Below, in pieces: positions 6,803 through 20,644 of a DNA stretch of 32,158 nucleotides (its first letter is position 1; each line of letters begins with the position of its first letter). The notes beneath the pieces were generated by a model that had not been told where the DNA came from, ran no database searches, and worked only from the letters and a program-made list of their open reading frames with translations. Position numbers and translations under genes: made by a program. Origin of the DNA: an uncultured Bacteroidales bacterium. GTDB taxonomy: Bacteria; Bacteroidota; Bacteroidia; Bacteroidales; P3. Location: positions 1 to 32,158 of the forward strand of contig ONLQ01000022.1 of NCBI GenBank assembly GCA_900318665.1, written 5' to 3'.

Positions 6803-8575
6803 ATGAAACTACACTTATTTAATAATAGTGGCAAGAAAAGCAATCAGCGCCGCAGCGACTGGCTCGAAATGGCGGCAGGGGTGCTGATTATAGTGTTTGT
6901 CAACATCATAGGCTACTATCTCTTTGCCCGCATCGACCTCACCTCGGAGCGCCGCTACACGCTGTCGAAATCGACCAAGGAGATGCTGCGCAGCATTGAC
7001 GAGCCGGTGCTGTTCCGCGTCTATCTGGAAGGCGAGTTTCCGGCCGACTTCAAACGTCTGCAGAACGAGACCAAGGAGATGCTCAACCAGTTCAGAGCCT
7101 ACAGCCCATACATAAACTACGAGTTTGTAAACCCCAACAACTTTGAGAACCCGCAAGAGCGGCAGGTGTTCTATCAGAAACTGATGAGCAAAGGCATACA
7201 GCCGACGCAGATACAGGTGCGCAACGGCGACGCCACGACCACGCAGGTGCTGGTGCCCGCCGCCGACGTGAGTTACAGAGGCCGCGAGACCTCGGTGCAG
7301 TTGCTTCAGAACCAGAAATATGTGCCCGAAGCCGAACTGCTCAACAACTCGATACAGAACCTGGAGTATGTGCTGTGCAACGCCATTCGCGGCCTGTCAA
7401 GAGGCAAACGCCCGATGGTGGGCTTTCTGACGGGACACGGCGAGTTGAACGGCGGCGTGCTGTTTGACATACAAGGCGCGCTGCAAGAGCACTACGACCT
7501 CGACTACGCCACCATTGACGGACAGATTAACGCCCTGACGGCACGCCACCAAAGCAGCAAGGACTCGTCGTATAGTTTCTACAACAAATACGACCTGCTG
7601 ATTGTTGCCAAGCCCCGCACCGCCTTCAGCAACGAGGACCTCTATATACTCGACCAATACATAATGTATGGCGGCAAGGTGCTGTGGCTCGTTGATGTGC
7701 TTGACGCCGACCTCGACAGCCTGGCGCATCGTGGGCAGGCTCTCTCCACTACCCTGCCACTGGGCCTCGAGACGATGTTTTTCACCTACGGCGTGCGCAT
7801 AAACCCCGACCTGGTGCAAGACATACGCTGCCGCCCCATACCCATGACCGTAGGCATGGTGGGCGACAAACCGCAGATACAGTTCTGCCCGTGGTTCTAC
7901 TTCCCCGAAGTGGTGCCGACGGCACAGCACCCCATAGTGCGCAACCTCGACCTGATAAAATGCGACTTTGTGAGCAGCATAGACTTGATAGACAACGACG
8001 TGGAAAAGACCGTGCTGCTGACAACCTCCGACTATTCGCGCGTGAAGAACGCCCCCGTGGTGATAGACCTCAACGACGCCAAGGTGGACATCAACAGCAT
8101 AGACCAGCGTCTTTTCTCGCGCCAGCACATACCCATTGCCGTGCTGCTGGAAGGCAAATTCCACTCGATGTTCCGCAACAGGCTCACGCCGCAGTTTGAG
8201 GAACTGCCCGCCATGGGCTTCCGCCAGGAGAGCGAGCCGACGAAGATGATTGTGGTGTCGGACGGCGACATAATACGCAACCGCTACAATATGCAGGAGG
8301 GCAGCGGCTACCCCATGGGCTACGACCACTACACGCAGACCCTCTACGCCAACAAAGAGTTTATACTCAACGCCGTGGACTATCTGACCGGCGGCGAGGA
8401 CTTTATGGCTACCCGCTCGCGCGACGTGAAACTGCGCAAACTGAACGTGAAGAAAATCCACGACAGCCGCGCCATCTACCAGGTTGTCAACGTGGTGCTG
8501 CCAGCGCTGATTATAGCCCTCGTGGGAGTGGCTATGGTGCTGCTGCGCCGCAAGAGATTTCAGAAAAAGGCTTAA
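6803..8575 (+). CDS. gldG: GldG-type ABC transporter auxiliary protein
   Basis: 590 residues. A membrane anchor at about 22-43, then a long extracytoplasmic region beginning RIDLTSERRYTLSKSTKEML, which is the diagnostic start of GldG, with an ABC-transporter auxiliary domain containing GFLTGHGELNGG, and a second membrane helix at about 563-583 followed by a basic tail (LLRRKRFQKKA). GldG works with the GldF permease and GldA ATPase; the complex is needed for gliding in Flavobacterium-like organisms but its substrate is unknown. It follows gldF in the same direction after a 98-bp repeat-rich spacer and precedes the DUF4340 gene, which commonly accompanies it. Confidence 0.88.
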   Translation: MKLHLFNNSGKKSNQRRSDWLEMAAGVLIIVFVNIIGYYLFARIDLTSERRYTLSKSTKEMLRSIDEPVLFRVYLEGEFPADFKRLQNETKEMLNQFRAYSPYINYEFVNPNNFENPQERQVFYQKLMSKGIQPTQIQVRNGDATTTQVLVPAADVSYRGRETSVQLLQNQKYVPEAELLNNSIQNLEYVLCNAIRGLSRGKRPMVGFLTGHGELNGGVLFDIQGALQEHYDLDYATIDGQINALTARHQSSKDSSYSFYNKYDLLIVAKPRTAFSNEDLYILDQYIMYGGKVLWLVDVLDADLDSLAHRGQALSTTLPLGLETMFFTYGVRINPDLVQDIRCRPIPMTVGMVGDKPQIQFCPWFYFPEVVPTAQHPIVRNLDLIKCDFVSSIDLIDNDVEKTVLLTTSDYSRVKNAPVVIDLNDAKVDINSIDQRLFSRQHIPIAVLLEGKFHSMFRNRLTPQFEELPAMGFRQESEPTKMIVVSDGDIIRNRYNMQEGSGYPMGYDHYTQTLYANKEFILNAVDYLTGGEDFMATRSRDVKLRKLNVKKIHDSRAIYQVVNVVLPALIIALVGVAMVLLRRKRFQKKA

Positions 8576-8668
8576 AGGAAATAAGCAGGCCTTTGAGGCA
8601 TAGGAACTGCTATGGCTGCCTATGTCGGCATAGAAAAGCCTATAAAACTATAAAACAAACAAAACACT

Positions 8669-9751
8669 ATGTCACTCTCTCGACGTACTAAAAATATCAT
8701 TATCATTGCCATTGTTGTGGCGGCAGGCGTGGCGGCACTGATAGTCAGCCTCACGCGCGGCAAAAACGCCACCTTTGAGCAGGACTACCACATTGCCGAC
8801 ATCACGACGGTGACGAAGATTTATATGGCCGACAAGAACAACCACGACGTGACGCTGACACGCACCATTGGCGACAACGGCGACACAGCATGGGTGGTTG
8901 ACGGCAAATATCCCGCCAGCAAGCCCATGATAGACCTGCTGACCGAGACACTGAACACCATGCGCATACGCAGCCAGGTGAACAAAAACGCCGTGCCTAA
9001 CATCATCAAGGACATTGCGGCAGCCAGCGTGAAGGTGGAAGTCTATCAGATGGTGTATTTCATCGACTGGTTTGGCGGCAGACTACAACTCTTCCCCCAC
9101 GAGAAACTCACCACCACCTACTATGTGGGCCGCGAGACGCAAGACCAGATGGCGACCTACATGTTTCGCGAGGGCGACAAAGTGCCTTTCGTGATACATA
9201 TCCCCGGTTTCCGCGGCTATCTGACACCCACGTTCTCCACCTCGCCCTACACCTGGCGCAGCCACAACATCGTGGCCCTCGACGTGAAACAGATAGAGCG
9301 TGTGCAACTCGACATACTTGCCGCCCCCGAAGAGAGTTTCGCCATCTACCGCGACGGCGAGACCTTTGCCATGGAACTGACGGCCTCGCACACCGTGCTG
9401 CCCGGCTTCGACACCGCCCGCGTGGCACAGATGCTCATCTCGATGCGCAACCTCAACTTTGACGAGTACGCCGCCATAGTGCCTAACGCCAACATGGACA
9501 CCTCGTTCCGCGAAGGACCGCGCAACATTCTGACCATCACCGACACCGCCCACGTGAGCCACGAGGTTAAGACCTACATAAAATATGTGAACCCCGACGA
9601 CGCCAAGGCAATGCCAAACCCCGAACTCTACAACACCTTCGACATTGACCGCCTCTACGCCATAGTGGACAACAAAGACACCGTGGTGCTGCAATACTAC
9701 GTTTTTGACAACATACTGCAACCCGCATCTTTCTTCTTCAAGAAACAATAG
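8669..9751 (+). CDS. DUF4340-like membrane-anchored protein
   Basis: 360 residues: one N-terminal membrane helix (about 8-28, IIIIAIVVAAGVAALIVSL) and an extracytoplasmic part. It contains DITTVTKIYMADKNNHDVTL (37-56), AWVVDGKYPASKPMIDLLTE (69-88) and a repeated similar module later, as in DUF4340 proteins that sit next to GldG-type transporter subunits. Its role is unknown; by position it is probably a periplasmic partner of the GldF/GldG transporter. The 93-bp spacer before it has no clear terminator. The gene ends 25 bp before the chosen surE start. Confidence 0.75.
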   Translation: MSLSRRTKNIIIIAIVVAAGVAALIVSLTRGKNATFEQDYHIADITTVTKIYMADKNNHDVTLTRTIGDNGDTAWVVDGKYPASKPMIDLLTETLNTMRIRSQVNKNAVPNIIKDIAAASVKVEVYQMVYFIDWFGGRLQLFPHEKLTTTYYVGRETQDQMATYMFREGDKVPFVIHIPGFRGYLTPTFSTSPYTWRSHNIVALDVKQIERVQLDILAAPEESFAIYRDGETFAMELTASHTVLPGFDTARVAQMLISMRNLNFDEYAAIVPNANMDTSFREGPRNILTITDTAHVSHEVKTYIKYVNPDDAKAMPNPELYNTFDIDRLYAIVDNKDTVVLQYYVFDNILQPASFFFKKQ

Positions 9752-17638: not shown

Positions 17639-18529
17639 TTACCAACCAATAAAACTATCAATATACTTTTGTGTATGAGTTGGAAGATTGGTTTGAACCA
17701 CTTGCATTTTCTTGATGCCCATCCCATTGCACCAAGAAGTAATTAATTGCTCTATTTTGTTGAAATCGCTGGTTCTTGCAGATAATGGATTAATCTCAAG
17801 AAACAGAACCTCTAACTTATCATTATAGTTTTTCCCTGTTGGAGTTATTGCAGTTTGATTTTTAACTGTCCGCGGCAAAATTCCAGTATAAACATTAGGA
17901 CTTGTTTGTTCCCAATTTTTAGTATATTGAATGTAACCATCCGTTAGTATAATAAGTATATTTCTATGGTCTTGCTTTACACACAGCATTTCTGCATCTT
18001 TAGCAAAGAATCCCCAAATATCCGAACCAACCCAGTTACTACTTGCTATCGTTTGTCGATATATGCTACTAATGCTTGAACTCCATGTGCCTTCCATGGC
18101 TCTTAGCATTCTCTTATTGTTTGCAATTGATGGACCACCACTTATAGTAAGATCCACCGCCATATCAGATATTATGTTATTGATATTGGACAATGACGGG
18201 TTGGGATAACAAATAACCTGTATTTTATCCTGAGTAAAATTCATCATCCCATTTTTATACTGACGCTTATAGAATCCCTTCTGAATATTCATCAGTATAG
18301 TTGAATCTTTTTCTGCTTGAGGTATATTTGCTTGGTTTCCATCATTCCGTATGATTCTATTTGACAAGTCAAGCATTACGGTTATGTTCAACGGTTTAAT
18401 AACAGGTTTGCTTTCTTCTGTTGCCGTTGGTTGCTCCGAATTCTTGTACCCTTTTGAGAACAAAGATACAGCCAATACTGCCACGATAGAAACAGCAATT
18501 ATATAAATGTATTGTTTCTTGATTTTCAT
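17639..18529 (-). CDS. Membrane-anchored VWA-like protein, third gene of the AT-rich island
   Basis: 296 residues. One N-terminal helix (about 8-25) anchors a soluble domain. PLNITVMLDLSNRIIR (residues 46-61) gives a beta strand ending in DLSNR, like the MIDAS DxSxS of von Willebrand A domains but with the second Ser replaced; a later strand ILIILTDGYIQY (191-202) has the matching TDG. A degenerate metal site is likely. No close family is recognised. The ATG overlaps the stop of the preceding coiled-coil gene by 4 bp (18526-18529), so translation is coupled. GC content is much lower than in hydE next door. VWA domains mediate protein contacts and occur with TerB-type proteins in stress and conflict systems, but the role here is unknown. 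Confidence 0.75.
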   Translation of the reverse strand: MKIKKQYIYIIAVSIVAVLAVSLFSKGYKNSEQPTATEESKPVIKPLNITVMLDLSNRIIRNDGNQANIPQAEKDSTILMNIQKGFYKRQYKNGMMNFTQDKIQVICYPNPSLSNINNIISDMAVDLTISGGPSIANNKRMLRAMEGTWSSSISSIYRQTIASSNWVGSDIWGFFAKDAEMLCVKQDHRNILIILTDGYIQYTKNWEQTSPNVYTGILPRTVKNQTAITPTGKNYNDKLEVLFLEINPLSARTSDFNKIEQLITSWCNGMGIKKMQVVQTNLPTHTQKYIDSFIGW

Positions 18530-19830
18530 TGGTTATCCTCCTGTTTTTGTTTAAATCTATTTTTTATACCATCCATCCAATCATTCACAAGAGCCATCTC
18601 TTGCGCATGCGCTGCAGCAAGGTTGCCTGTATTTATGTCTGAAATACCCATATAAGCAACCCAACCTCTATAGTAATCAGCCAAATGCTGCTTGATGGCC
18701 TCAAAGTCATACCTCACATTAGAGAAATATTCATGTTGCTTTTGTTTAATCTTAGCAATCAGTTGGTTTATCTGAACCTGCAACTCATTTATTTTGTTCT
18801 GCTGTTCCACTTTTGCATCTTTTAATCTGGCTATTTGATTGTCAAGTTCTCGCAGAATGGCTGTATTATCCATTTTTCTATTATAGCAATCCATTACGAA
18901 TCCATAAAGCAATCCCCAGATAACATAGGCTACAAAACCACAGAAAATCACCATCCAGAAATTTGAATCCACGATTGCAAGACCAACATTATATGGAGGT
19001 GGCGTTACCTCTGCTATAACAGACTCCGCATCATACGCATGTTTTCCAATATTATAAGCAAGGAGAAAATCAAATGCAAATGTCATTAAGTACATCAATG
19101 TCACTTTGGCATATTTAGAGAATCCTTGGCTGTTTTTGCCCGAATGATGAGCGACATATCCCAAAGCCATAAAAACGATAGGTAGGAACAAGACAAAAAG
19201 GCCTGCAAGTGGTCCCTCCTGGAATGCTTTAACAACAGCCTCTCCATCAAAAATCTTTTTTATAACCTTTATATCCCCTTCATTTGTCAAACCAATACTC
19301 CAATCCCTGAAAAAGGCAGAATATGCTGTAGAAGAATAAAAAATAAACAGATAGACTGTCAGCAAAGTTATAAGAAACGTTCCTATCCATAAATTAACCG
19401 TATTAGTTCTATTGCTTTGTGTTACTCCGCTTTTAATTTTGGATTTATCATCATTCTTCTGGTCTATACTATCTTGAATATCTTTGAGTTTTTCTTGTTC
19501 TTGGCCCAATTTTGTCTCTTTTCCAGACTTCTCTCCTTCTAACCCCTCTATCTCCTTTTGCAGTGTTGCCTTCATCTTTTCCTGCATCTCAGAATCCAGC
19601 TCTTGCGACTTTTTAGATTGTGCAAATACAGATTGAAATCCAGCATGAAACGCATTTAAATCAGCATTGGAACACCCTGCATCCTGTATTCCCTTATTTT
19701 TCCAATCTACATTGGATGCAATAACAACATGTCCCGTAGAGGTTGTTCCCACAACTGTTGCGACATCACTTGTCCCGTCAACCACCTCTGGTTGTACTTT
19801 CTTTTTTTTGAATATATCAATAAGTGCCAT
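18526..19830 (-). CDS. Coiled-coil, four-helix membrane protein, second gene of the AT-rich island
   Basis: 434 residues from the ATG at 19830 (MALIDIFKKKKVQPE). A start 8 codons earlier (19854) would overlap the TerB-like gene by 8 bp and is equally possible. The layout is symmetric: a long charged coiled coil (about 72-137, rich in Glu, Lys and Gln), a membrane helix (144-168), a loop, three more helices (about 207-227, 242-262 and 291-314), then a second coiled coil (324-372) and a C-terminal soluble tail. Both coiled coils would lie on the same side if all four helices cross the membrane. No known family is recognised. Its position between a TerB-like and a VWA-like gene suggests a membrane scaffold for a complex (inference). 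Codon use is AT-rich, unlike the flanks. Confidence 0.8.
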   Translation of the reverse strand: MALIDIFKKKKVQPEVVDGTSDVATVVGTTSTGHVVIASNVDWKNKGIQDAGCSNADLNAFHAGFQSVFAQSKKSQELDSEMQEKMKATLQKEIEGLEGEKSGKETKLGQEQEKLKDIQDSIDQKNDDKSKIKSGVTQSNRTNTVNLWIGTFLITLLTVYLFIFYSSTAYSAFFRDWSIGLTNEGDIKVIKKIFDGEAVVKAFQEGPLAGLFVLFLPIVFMALGYVAHHSGKNSQGFSKYAKVTLMYLMTFAFDFLLAYNIGKHAYDAESVIAEVTPPPYNVGLAIVDSNFWMVIFCGFVAYVIWGLLYGFVMDCYNRKMDNTAILRELDNQIARLKDAKVEQQNKINELQVQINQLIAKIKQKQHEYFSNVRYDFEAIKQHLADYYRGWVAYMGISDINTGNLAAAHAQEMALVNDWMDGIKNRFKQKQEDNQ

Positions 19831-19846
19831 ATTCTGTTCAATTTTA

Positions 19847-20254
19847 TTATTCAAAAAATTCTTTTATCACTTGAGAATGAGTTAATTTCTGTTTTGCTTT
19901 TTCAAGCATCAAATCGGATAATTCATCTACTTTGTCTTCCTCAAACCCAAATTTCATGGCCGTCTGACGAAGCAATCCTTTCTCCTCATCTGTAATCTTT
20001 CCATCCGCCCAGGCCAACGATGCCATATCATAAAGATAAATTATCTTGTCTTCATCCTTTTCTGGCAAATAGAAAAGAATCTCGTTTGAAATAATAAGTT
20101 TGTCAAGTTCTTCAACTGTCAAACCAAATTCCTCTCTCCCGATGCGATATATTTCCGCTTTTTCCAAGGGAGACACCTCCATGTCAGCAATCATCATTCC
20201 ATATAGATTAAGGAAATGAGATTTAAGTGATGGACTAATTGTATTATCAGCCAT
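19847..20254 (-). CDS. TerB-like protein, first gene of the AT-rich island
   Basis: 135 residues from the ATG at 20254 (MADNTISPSLKSHF). An ATG at 20317 would add 21 residues with no family resemblance. Two helical halves are visible: MMIADMEVSPLEKAEIYRIG (20-39) and ASLAWADGKITDEEKGLLRQ (about 78-97). The second is the LAxADGxIxxEE pattern of TerB/DjlA-type domains, whose acidic residues can bind metal. TerB proteins are cytoplasmic or membrane-associated and occur in tellurite-resistance and phage-defence-like gene sets. It is the promoter-proximal gene of the three-gene set and ends next to or overlapping the coiled-coil gene. The domain assignment is fairly secure; the function is not. 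Confidence 0.78.
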   Translation of the reverse strand: MADNTISPSLKSHFLNLYGMMIADMEVSPLEKAEIYRIGREEFGLTVEELDKLIISNEILFYLPEKDEDKIIYLYDMASLAWADGKITDEEKGLLRQTAMKFGFEEDKVDELSDLMLEKAKQKLTHSQVIKEFFE

Positions 20255-20644
20255 AACGTTACTTTTTTTGTCCCGACCCTCCAACAGAACATTATTTTTA
20301 CGGAATAAGAAAGGCATGAGGTTATGTACTCATGTCCGTTTACTTGTAGGTTTCTGCAATCACCTTTGTGGGAAACGGGGAATAATGGAACATATCTCAC
20401 GCCTGAAGATATGCTATGGTTATAGCATACACATCCAAGCGAAAGCATAAATGCTCTTCCTTCCCACTGATAATTTTGCAGAATTTACAAGTAAGGACAG
20501 TCTTGCAATGCTTTTTCTTGCTTATGCTTTTTGCTCTTAAAAGCAGTGCAAAAATACAAAAAAACTAATATTTTCACTATTTTTTATTTATACAATAGTG
20601 TCCAATCTCAAAAACAACATGTCTCGAAAAAACTAGATTTTGTG
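20255..20644. promoter_or_regulatory. Leader region of the TerB-like operon with hairpins
   Basis: No supported gene in these 390 bp. On the minus strand a TATTTTTG box (20556-20549) would put transcription about 290 nt before the TerB-like ATG. The transcribed leader holds a perfect 8-bp hairpin TATGCTAT-ggtt-ATAGCATA (20410-20429) and a smaller one AGCAT-aa-ATGCT (20444-20455); related AGCATA and GCTTATGC words recur nearby. This could be an operator or a structured 5' leader. Short frames on both strands here have no family resemblance. Confidence 0.4.

What the first reader, a model, noticed from the sequence alone, without database searches (positions are those of the whole stretch)
17639..20254. 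AT-rich three-gene island: TerB-like, coiled-coil membrane protein, membrane-anchored VWA-like protein
Three minus-strand genes, one of them overlapping the next by 4 bp, lie between plus-strand housekeeping genes. By eye their GC is about 35-42% against about 55-65% in the flanks, so they were probably acquired. The combination of a TerB-type domain, a four-helix membrane protein with coiled coils at both ends, and an anchored VWA-like domain with a degenerate DLSNR metal site matches no system I know. TerB and VWA domains do co-occur in ter-type stress and phage-conflict gene sets. I infer a membrane-associated sensing or defence complex: TerB in the cytoplasm, the coiled-coil protein as scaffold, VWA as binding module.
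Basis: partly seen in the sequence, partly recalled or inferred. Interest (0 to 1): 0.75.

Follow-up and report, generated by a model that had tools for sequence, protein, structure and literature searches.

The report
Mobile three-gene bacterial membrane complex
A small block of three genes that Bacteroidota bacteria pass among themselves appears to build a complex across the cell membrane, and two distant relatives of it sit inside CRISPR immune loci, which suggests that it may help defend the cell.

Summary
Three minus-strand genes (window 17639-20254; GC3 0.32-0.34 against 0.59-0.82 in 14 other window genes) encode a TerB domain (Pfam E 6.5e-8), a four-TM coiled-coil protein (CC) and a membrane-anchored protein whose model resembles VWA domains. 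CC and VWA have no Pfam family. The trio recurs: 64 of 82 distinct loci have TerB-CC-VWA, 13 CC-VWA, 5 VWA alone. CC and VWA profiles hit the same 21 of 392 phylum genomes, adjacent. Presence is patchy (6 of 120 genus genomes); one clade for four same-genus copies is rejected (p=0.0003). On a Runella plasmid CC and VWA are one 704-aa protein inside a type III-B CRISPR-Cas locus; genome G315 has CC-VWA beside Card1 and RT-Cas1. I infer a transmembrane complex with exchangeable cytoplasmic input, most likely a defence effector. No experiment shows this; besides Runella, Cas genes lay near one locus only among 107 stretches scanned. A rod-shaped RNA, unmatched in Rfam scans, leads the operon and other Bacteroidales genes.

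The parts
20549..20556 (-). Bacteroidota-type -7 promoter element TATTTTTG in front of the leader RNA
   Evidence: sequence and position; the TAnnTTTG consensus is recalled, not from a call
20300..20549 (-). structured leader RNA (about 250 nt, rod-shaped), ending 45 nt before the TerB start
   Evidence: fold z-score -6.86, 0 of 200 shuffles as stable; 79% identical over 290 nt to the leader of a same-genus copy, L011, 84% over 226 nt to L252; in 5 aligned sequences 15 of 76 pairs keep pairing with both sides changed; the wider family covaries strongly. Against: the window's own copy scores only 14.2 bits, E 0.22, with model R1, and the covariation term is small
19847..20254 (-). TerB-domain protein, 135 aa, taken as cytoplasmic; acidic D24/E31 and D84/E91 conserved
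   Evidence: Pfam PF05099 6.5e-8; D24, E31, E91 invariant and D84 nearly so in 41 aligned proteins, window included; PDB profile hit to a COG3793 tellurite-resistance protein, 2ou3, 1.6e-6
18526..19830 (-). four-TM coiled-coil membrane protein (CC), 434 aa, no known family
   Evidence: no Pfam hit above cut-off for the window protein; model pLDDT 89.2, pTM 0.65, no PDB fold match at E<=0.001; conserved residues in 64 aligned proteins
17639..18529 (-). membrane-anchored VWA-fold protein, 296 aa; N-terminal helix residues 5-24; motifs DLSNR (DLSDR in the family) and RNILIILTDGY
   Evidence: model pLDDT 88.7 and Foldseek hits; motif counts

Best explanation
A horizontally moving membrane complex of Bacteroidota. 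Its core is the CC-VWA pair (shown: exact co-occurrence and a natural fusion; inferred: physical contact). CC spans the inner membrane four times and holds a long coiled-coil stalk in the cytoplasm (predicted); the VWA domain is anchored outside, apparently as a lipoprotein in most relatives and by a plain hydrophobic helix in the window (predicted). TerB, encoded first, is the cytoplasmic input in the stand-alone form; in the two copies found in type III CRISPR loci no TerB is seen and the CRISPR pathway presumably supplies the input. Proposed mechanism: an infection or envelope-stress signal received through TerB, or through CRISPR signalling, is carried by the stalk into the four-helix bundle and changes the membrane (leak, depolarisation or growth arrest), with the outer VWA domain gating or positioning the bundle through a non-canonical metal-site loop (DxSDR in place of DxSxS). 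The last two steps are inference.
For: Order TerB-CC-VWA in 64 of 82 distinct loci; gaps median 3 and 4 nt, TerB-CC at most 20 nt in 64 of 64. CC and VWA profiles hit the same 21 of 392 genomes, once each, adjacent. Runella plasmid: CC (E 7e-52) and VWA (E 3e-32) in one chain, between csx2/WYL genes and primase-polymerase, cas2, cas1 of a type III-B locus with cas10 and cmr1, 3, 4, 5, 6, and a repeat array of about 90 units behind. G315: CC-VWA beside Card1, Cas_NE0113 and RT-Cas1 (Pfam), with cas6-, cas2-, Csm- and Cas10-like genes adjoining (by eye and order). Neighbour clusters in 80 loci: SNase 13 members, HSDR_N 12, TIR/FGE 5, caspase 3 (Pfam of one representative each). Patchy presence and non-monophyly. 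Lipobox-like signal in 50 of 71 VWA proteins by a loose pattern.
Against: Cas genes were found near one locus (G315) in 107 stretches scanned by similarity, overlaps included, besides the Runella plasmid. No homologue was found in the phage, viral-contig and plasmid searches except Runella. PADLOC has no convincing match for CC or VWA; in a sample of 150 of 220 close neighbours its SNase-type model matched 12, two others 2 each, the rest of the 25 listed of 58 one each. No CARF or SAVED domain was seen in CC, VWA or the fusion. In Flavobacteria the genes follow a TPR-kinase and a response regulator, which fits a regulated envelope function as well. Charge around the CC helices is only partly as expected: K/R 5, 2 and 6 in the stretches taken as inner, 5 and 0 in those taken as outer. 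The VWA fold matches have TM-scores under 0.5 and rmsd of 7 to 20. No defence, leak or interaction was measured.
Confidence: 0.5

Rival explanations
1. Envelope-stress or surface-maintenance module without a defence role: a two-component system (TPR kinase and response regulator) switches on a variable set of small membrane and secreted proteins, TerB-CC-VWA among them.
For: A response-regulator cluster of 15 members and a TPR cluster of 10 lie mostly two or three genes upstream on the same strand; representatives match HATPase_c above its cut-off and Response_reg just below its cut-off (28.3 against 30.2 bits). The same pair is seen by eye in several of L241-L251. Small membrane proteins DUF6804, YidD, DUF4236 and Excalibur alongside.
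Against: The 14 regulator members displayed are from Flavobacteriales or Sphingobacteriales, so the Bacteroidales copies seem to lack it; patchy, transferred distribution; two CRISPR-embedded copies; nuclease, HSDR_N, TIR and caspase neighbours.
Confidence: 0.27
2. Ter-type metal or oxidative stress response: TerB binds a metal and the complex protects against tellurite-like stress.
For: TerB domain with its acidic residues kept.
Against: No TerC, TerD or TerZ family among the 25 of 90 neighbour families listed (the other 65 were not shown); 13 of 82 loci have no recognised TerB; the VWA metal site is degenerate.
Confidence: 0.1
3. Contact-dependent competition or immunity: the outer VWA protein binds an incoming toxin or surface partner and CC relays it.
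For: Outer location of VWA predicted; VWA domains are commonly adhesive (recalled).
Against: No toxin or secretion family among the neighbour clusters and families listed (capped lists).
Confidence: 0.08

Closest known systems
Shango (TerB-like protein, ATPase, helicase; PMC10250203, passages read)
   Same: Three-gene operon with a TerB domain; shown there to inhibit phages
   Different: Shango has a helicase and an ATPase; here the partners are a four-TM coiled-coil protein and an anchored VWA-fold protein, neither with an ATPase or helicase match above cut-off
Type III CRISPR membrane effectors Cam1 and Csx23 (PMC10808066, PMC11014256) and candidates Cam2, Cam3 (PMC11229360); passages read
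   Same: Membrane protein encoded in type III CRISPR loci, in two relatives of this family; membrane-directed output is plausible
   Different: No nucleotide-binding domain recognised; two-protein assembly with an outer VWA domain; nearly all copies seen are not CRISPR-linked; 'VWA' and 'coiled' do not occur in the main text of PMC11229360
TerY-P triad (VWA, PP2C phosphatase, kinase; described in PMC11090510, passages read)
   Same: A Ter-linked VWA protein in conflict settings
   Different: No phosphatase or kinase in this operon; VWA carries an N-terminal export or anchor signal and lacks DxSxS, whereas that paper describes the 5' TerY-like VWA of its systems as keeping DxSxS...T...D
Zorya (ZorA membrane coiled-coil motor; recalled)
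   Same: Membrane protein with a long cytoplasmic coiled coil
   Different: No MotA/ExbB match in Pfam; the PADLOC ZorA hit (E 0.0044) covers residues 323-384, coiled coil only; no other Zorya protein in the operon

Membership tests
TerB (PF05099) | profile match above curated cut-off | tested here: met
   33.3 bits against 24.4
VWA domain | alpha/beta VWA fold | tested here: met
   model pLDDT 88.7, pTM 0.83; 5 Foldseek hits at E<=0.001, all chains of TFIIH complexes, then PilB, BRCA1-A, Rpn10-type, Ku80 and INTS13-14 chains; TM-scores 0.23-0.49 among these, rmsd 7-20; other folds (azoreductase) from rank 24. That the TFIIH chains are the VWA subunit p44 is recalled
VWA domain | Pfam sequence match above cut-off | tested here: not met
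   none for the window protein; VWA_2 in 3 and VWA in 2 of 71 aligned proteins at E<=0.1
VWA domain | canonical MIDAS DxSxS...T...D | tested here: not met
   D54 and S56 in 70 of 71, but R58 in 70 of 71 where Ser is expected (the odd row reads X); D197 in 71 of 71; MIDAS definition from PMC11090510
Shango | ATPase and helicase partners | tested here: not met
   no such family above cut-off in the three proteins
Zorya | MotA/ExbB/TolQ-like ZorA | tested here: not met
   no Pfam match; PADLOC hit weak and confined to coiled coil
Type III CRISPR effector | located in type III CRISPR loci | tested here: inconclusive
   met by the Runella plasmid copy and G315; not by the window copy, nor found at the other stretches scanned
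Type III CRISPR effector | CARF, SAVED or other cyclic-nucleotide sensor domain | tested here: not met
   none matched in CC, VWA or the fusion (tallies in 59 and 105 show the first 25 families); an unknown sensor domain is not excluded
Anti-phage defence system | protects against phage | not testable with these tools
   needs an experiment

The most novel reading that the evidence does not exclude
CC-VWA is a new class of trans-envelope defence effector: a membrane machine whose cytoplasmic input module is swapped between a stand-alone TerB sensor and type III CRISPR signalling, so that one effector serves both innate and adaptive immunity in Bacteroidota, under control of a new RNA leader in Bacteroidales.
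Probability: 0.35. Interest if true: 0.85.

Novelty: new variant of a known kind. Interest (0 to 1): 0.64.

Why it matters
It puts two unnamed protein families together as one unit and gives them a testable role. If right, it adds a membrane effector with an outer-facing domain to the short list of type III CRISPR membrane effectors, and shows the same effector used with a non-CRISPR sensor. The leader RNA, if confirmed, is a widespread uncatalogued Bacteroidales RNA with strong covariation.

Tried and rejected
Searches of plasmids, phages and viral contigs with window VWA, the VWA and CC alignments, window CC (plasmids only), a Flavobacterium VWA (plasmids) and the Runella fusion gave only the Runella plasmid. 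Matches of CC to SMC, LmuB, spanins, dynein and the like were set aside as coiled-coil matches; the weak DUF4199 match was not pursued. An exact empty site could not be shown: the closest relative by hydE (G031) shares rimO-hydE but continues with other genes, and one genome per species is held. Of the 14 other hits of the leader DNA in the own genome, one, on C40, is a second copy; the 13 short ones look by eye mostly like shared promoter sequence, though L098 and L106 may be degenerate copies. The idea that the rod RNA is a standing part of the DUF805 leader was tested and dropped: 2 of 30 DUF805 loci have it. Class-wide searches around G315 (1 of 98 genomes) and G189 (1 of 4) found only those two genomes themselves. 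Dropped before counts: L013, L027, L056 and L067 as duplicates of L008, L010, L011 and L009 (the first searches still held them); L007, a fragment with two stops, was not used; rows shorter than 250 aa (VWA) or 380 aa (CC), rows open at an end and some near-duplicates were left out of alignments A5 and A6; G153 and G178 were found after the tree was made and are not in it.
Full report
WHAT IS THERE. Between a hydE-like gene and lolA-like and MATE-like genes (names by eye) lie three minus-strand genes: TerB 19847-20254, CC 18526-19830, VWA 17639-18529. CC and VWA overlap by 4 bp. Their GC3 is 0.32-0.34 against 0.59-0.82 in 14 other window genes.

PROTEINS. TerB matches Pfam PF05099 above cut-off; its acidic residues are conserved in 41 aligned proteins. 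CC has no family above cut-off. Its model (pLDDT 89.2, pTM 0.65; 64 sequences) is a bundle of long helices with no PDB fold match at E<=0.001. Hydrophobic stretches lie near 144-170, 202-231, 243-261 and 282-315; K/R counts of 5, 2 and 6 in the stretches taken as inner and 5 and 0 in those taken as outer support both ends inside only in part. VWA has no sequence family. Its model (pLDDT 88.7, pTM 0.83; 71 sequences) finds VWA-type chains first (best E 1.2e-4), but with TM-scores under 0.5 and large rmsd. Of 71 aligned proteins, 70 have D54, S56 and R58, 69 have D57 (the window has N), and 71 have D197, so the canonical DxSxS site is altered in the whole family. A lipobox-like motif is seen in 50 of 71 by a loose pattern, which misses some that look like lipoproteins by eye; the window has a plain hydrophobic anchor.

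A RECURRENT OPERON. One scan of the species-genome collection gave 234 relatives of VWA, of which the best 80 were kept. With the window and five loci from relatives, 82 distinct loci remain after removing four duplicates. TerB-CC-VWA is present in 64, CC-VWA in 13 (L012 and L048 cut), VWA alone in 5 (L016, L038, L047 cut; L030 and L068 not); the TerB-CC gap is at most 20 nt in 64 of 64, and CC-VWA at most 25 nt in 75 of 77, measured on mechanical starts. The set was chosen by VWA similarity, so the independent test is the phylum search: VWA and CC profiles each hit 21 of 392 genomes (own genome included), the same ones, at adjacent places (E<=1e-10, and only a few first-look candidates per genome were scored, so weak relatives may be missed).

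TRANSFER. 6 of 120 genomes of the window's genus carry VWA, against a hydE match in 56 of 59 (own genome in both). Four same-genus copies do not form one clade (AU p 0.0003, quick tree, long branches present), although the window and L013 are sisters. The island is lower in GC than its flanks by 0.05 or more in 34 of 69 loci with over 6 kb of flank, and in 22 of the 26 whose flanks have at least 45% GC, but not in L008 (0.49 against 0.48). At higher ranks the tree follows orders well (8 changes against 31.9 in shuffles), so transfer seems mostly to be within orders. Some hits bear titles from other phyla (Elusimicrobiota, Acidobacteria, Roseburia); these are metagenome bins and may be mis-binned.

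NEIGHBOURS. Clustering 423 neighbours of 80 loci (up to three each side) gave recurrent same-strand partners, mostly in Flavobacteria, Sphingobacteria and Chitinophaga: response regulator 15 members, SNase 13, HSDR_N 12, TPR 10, an unnamed lipoprotein-like cluster 10, DUF6804 10, YidD 9, Excalibur 8, DUF4236 8, TIR/FGE 5, caspase 3. The names come from one representative each (the regulator just under its cut-off), and clusters are single-linkage. A sample of 150 of the 220 nearest eligible neighbours agrees: SNase 12, DUF6804 7, HSDR_N 6, YidD 4, TIR 3 (first 25 of 90 families shown); in PADLOC an SNase-type model matches 12, two others 2 each, the rest shown 1 each (first 25 of 58). No background rate was measured, so I do not claim enrichment for defence genes.

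THE CRISPR LINK. CC found one plasmid, pSP2_2 of Runella sp. SP2. There a single 704-aa protein holds CC (residues 28-418, E 7e-52), a further hydrophobic stretch (by eye, near 440-466) and VWA (472-703, E 3e-32), with no TerB match on the stretch read. It lies between csx2 and WYL genes and primase-polymerase, cas2 and cas1 of a type III-B locus with cas10 and cmr1, 3, 4, 5, 6; a repeat array of about 90 units follows. In genome G315, CC and VWA are separate genes beside Card1, Cas_NE0113 and RT-Cas1 (Pfam), with cas6-, cas2-, Csm- and Cas10-like genes adjoining (by eye and gene order); no array was plain in the stretches of that locus searched for repeats. Similarity scans with 25 proteins of these two loci against 107 stretches (overlaps included) found Cas genes only at G315 itself, and one WYL relative near L069. 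About 8 kb each side were held for most loci, and distant Cas proteins could be missed. The fusion argues that CC and VWA work as one, and the extra hydrophobic stretch agrees with VWA lying outside the inner membrane.

LEADER RNA. The DNA upstream of TerB is conserved between loci. In eight Prevotella-type loci it forms a 56-pair rod, 15 pairs changing on both sides. Model R1 from these eight gave 27 matches at E<=1 in 85 sources, 6 of them on the antisense strand as a rod allows; 18 of the 21 sense matches lie before the operon and 3 (L030, L055, L108) elsewhere. In the 19 best, which include the eight, 92.8% of cells pair against 41.5-45.2% when slid, 50 of 56 pairs change on both sides, and 0 of 500 shuffles reach this (the alignment was fitted to the structure, so counts lean towards it). 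The window's leader folds with z -6.86 and aligns with four others, three from same-genus operons and one from its own genome; 15 of 76 pairs change on both sides, though the covariation energy is small (-0.16). The window's copy scores only 14.2 bits with R1, so its membership rests on L011 (79% identical over 290 nt; R1 E 3.6e-6). Rfam at E<=1 gave nothing over the RNA in the window stretch or in ten loci, apart from sub-threshold DUF805 and DUF805b hairpins just behind it in L055 and L050. R1 matches 33 of 148 Bacteroidales genomes, up to 10 copies in one, the window's own genome not among them; of 30 such places 23 have an ORF close behind, of varied kinds by eye, so the RNA is not specific to this operon.

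MECHANISM. Shown: operon, CC-VWA pairing, fusion, two CRISPR settings, patchy and non-monophyletic spread. Predicted: membrane topology and VWA fold. Inferred: that the pair is a membrane effector with exchangeable input and that its output harms or halts an infected cell. Cam1 and Csx23 are precedents for membrane effectors in type III CRISPR (PMC10808066, PMC11014256; passages read), and Shango for TerB in an anti-phage operon (PMC10250203; passages read).

IN PRINT. Searches for TerB with defence, VWA or membrane terms (no paper; 18 papers; 97 papers, 8 listed) and type III CRISPR with VWA and membrane terms (205 papers, 15 listed; 2 each) listed no paper whose title or abstract start describes this trio. 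Open-licence papers only are held; I read passages of five (PMC11229360, PMC11014256, PMC10250203, PMC10808066, PMC11090510) and only the listing of the rest. Supplements of type III CRISPR surveys were not searched and may hold these proteins unnamed.

Noticed in passing
window 20300-20549 (-); L022:415-594, L024:659-836 and other loci: A rod-shaped structured RNA with strong covariation, unmatched in Rfam scans, in 33 of 148 Bacteroidales genomes, before varied genes.
   Followed up: partly
L108 (own genome, contig C40) about 7744-7949, before the ORF at 7955-8833: Second copy of the leader RNA in the window's genome, before a gene that looks like a GIY-YIG protein by eye.
   Followed up: partly
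L031, L061, L077 upstream genes: In three Chitinophaga loci the operon follows caspase and TIR-FGE genes (clusters; Pfam of L031).
   Followed up: no
L058, L063, L086, L089 upstream of CC: In four Pedobacter loci a DUF6804-type membrane protein sits where TerB would be (cluster; Pfam of L058).
   Followed up: no
L020:2689-4577: Two VWA genes in tandem after CC in one Bacteroides-titled bin.
   Followed up: no
L237, L239, L046 next to CC-VWA: In three loci without a recognised TerB, unnamed genes of similar look lie beside CC-VWA (by eye).
   Followed up: no
L235:14150-15616: The Runella CRISPR plasmid also carries a DUF7017 and S1CSD-TOTE conflict-system protein.
   Followed up: no
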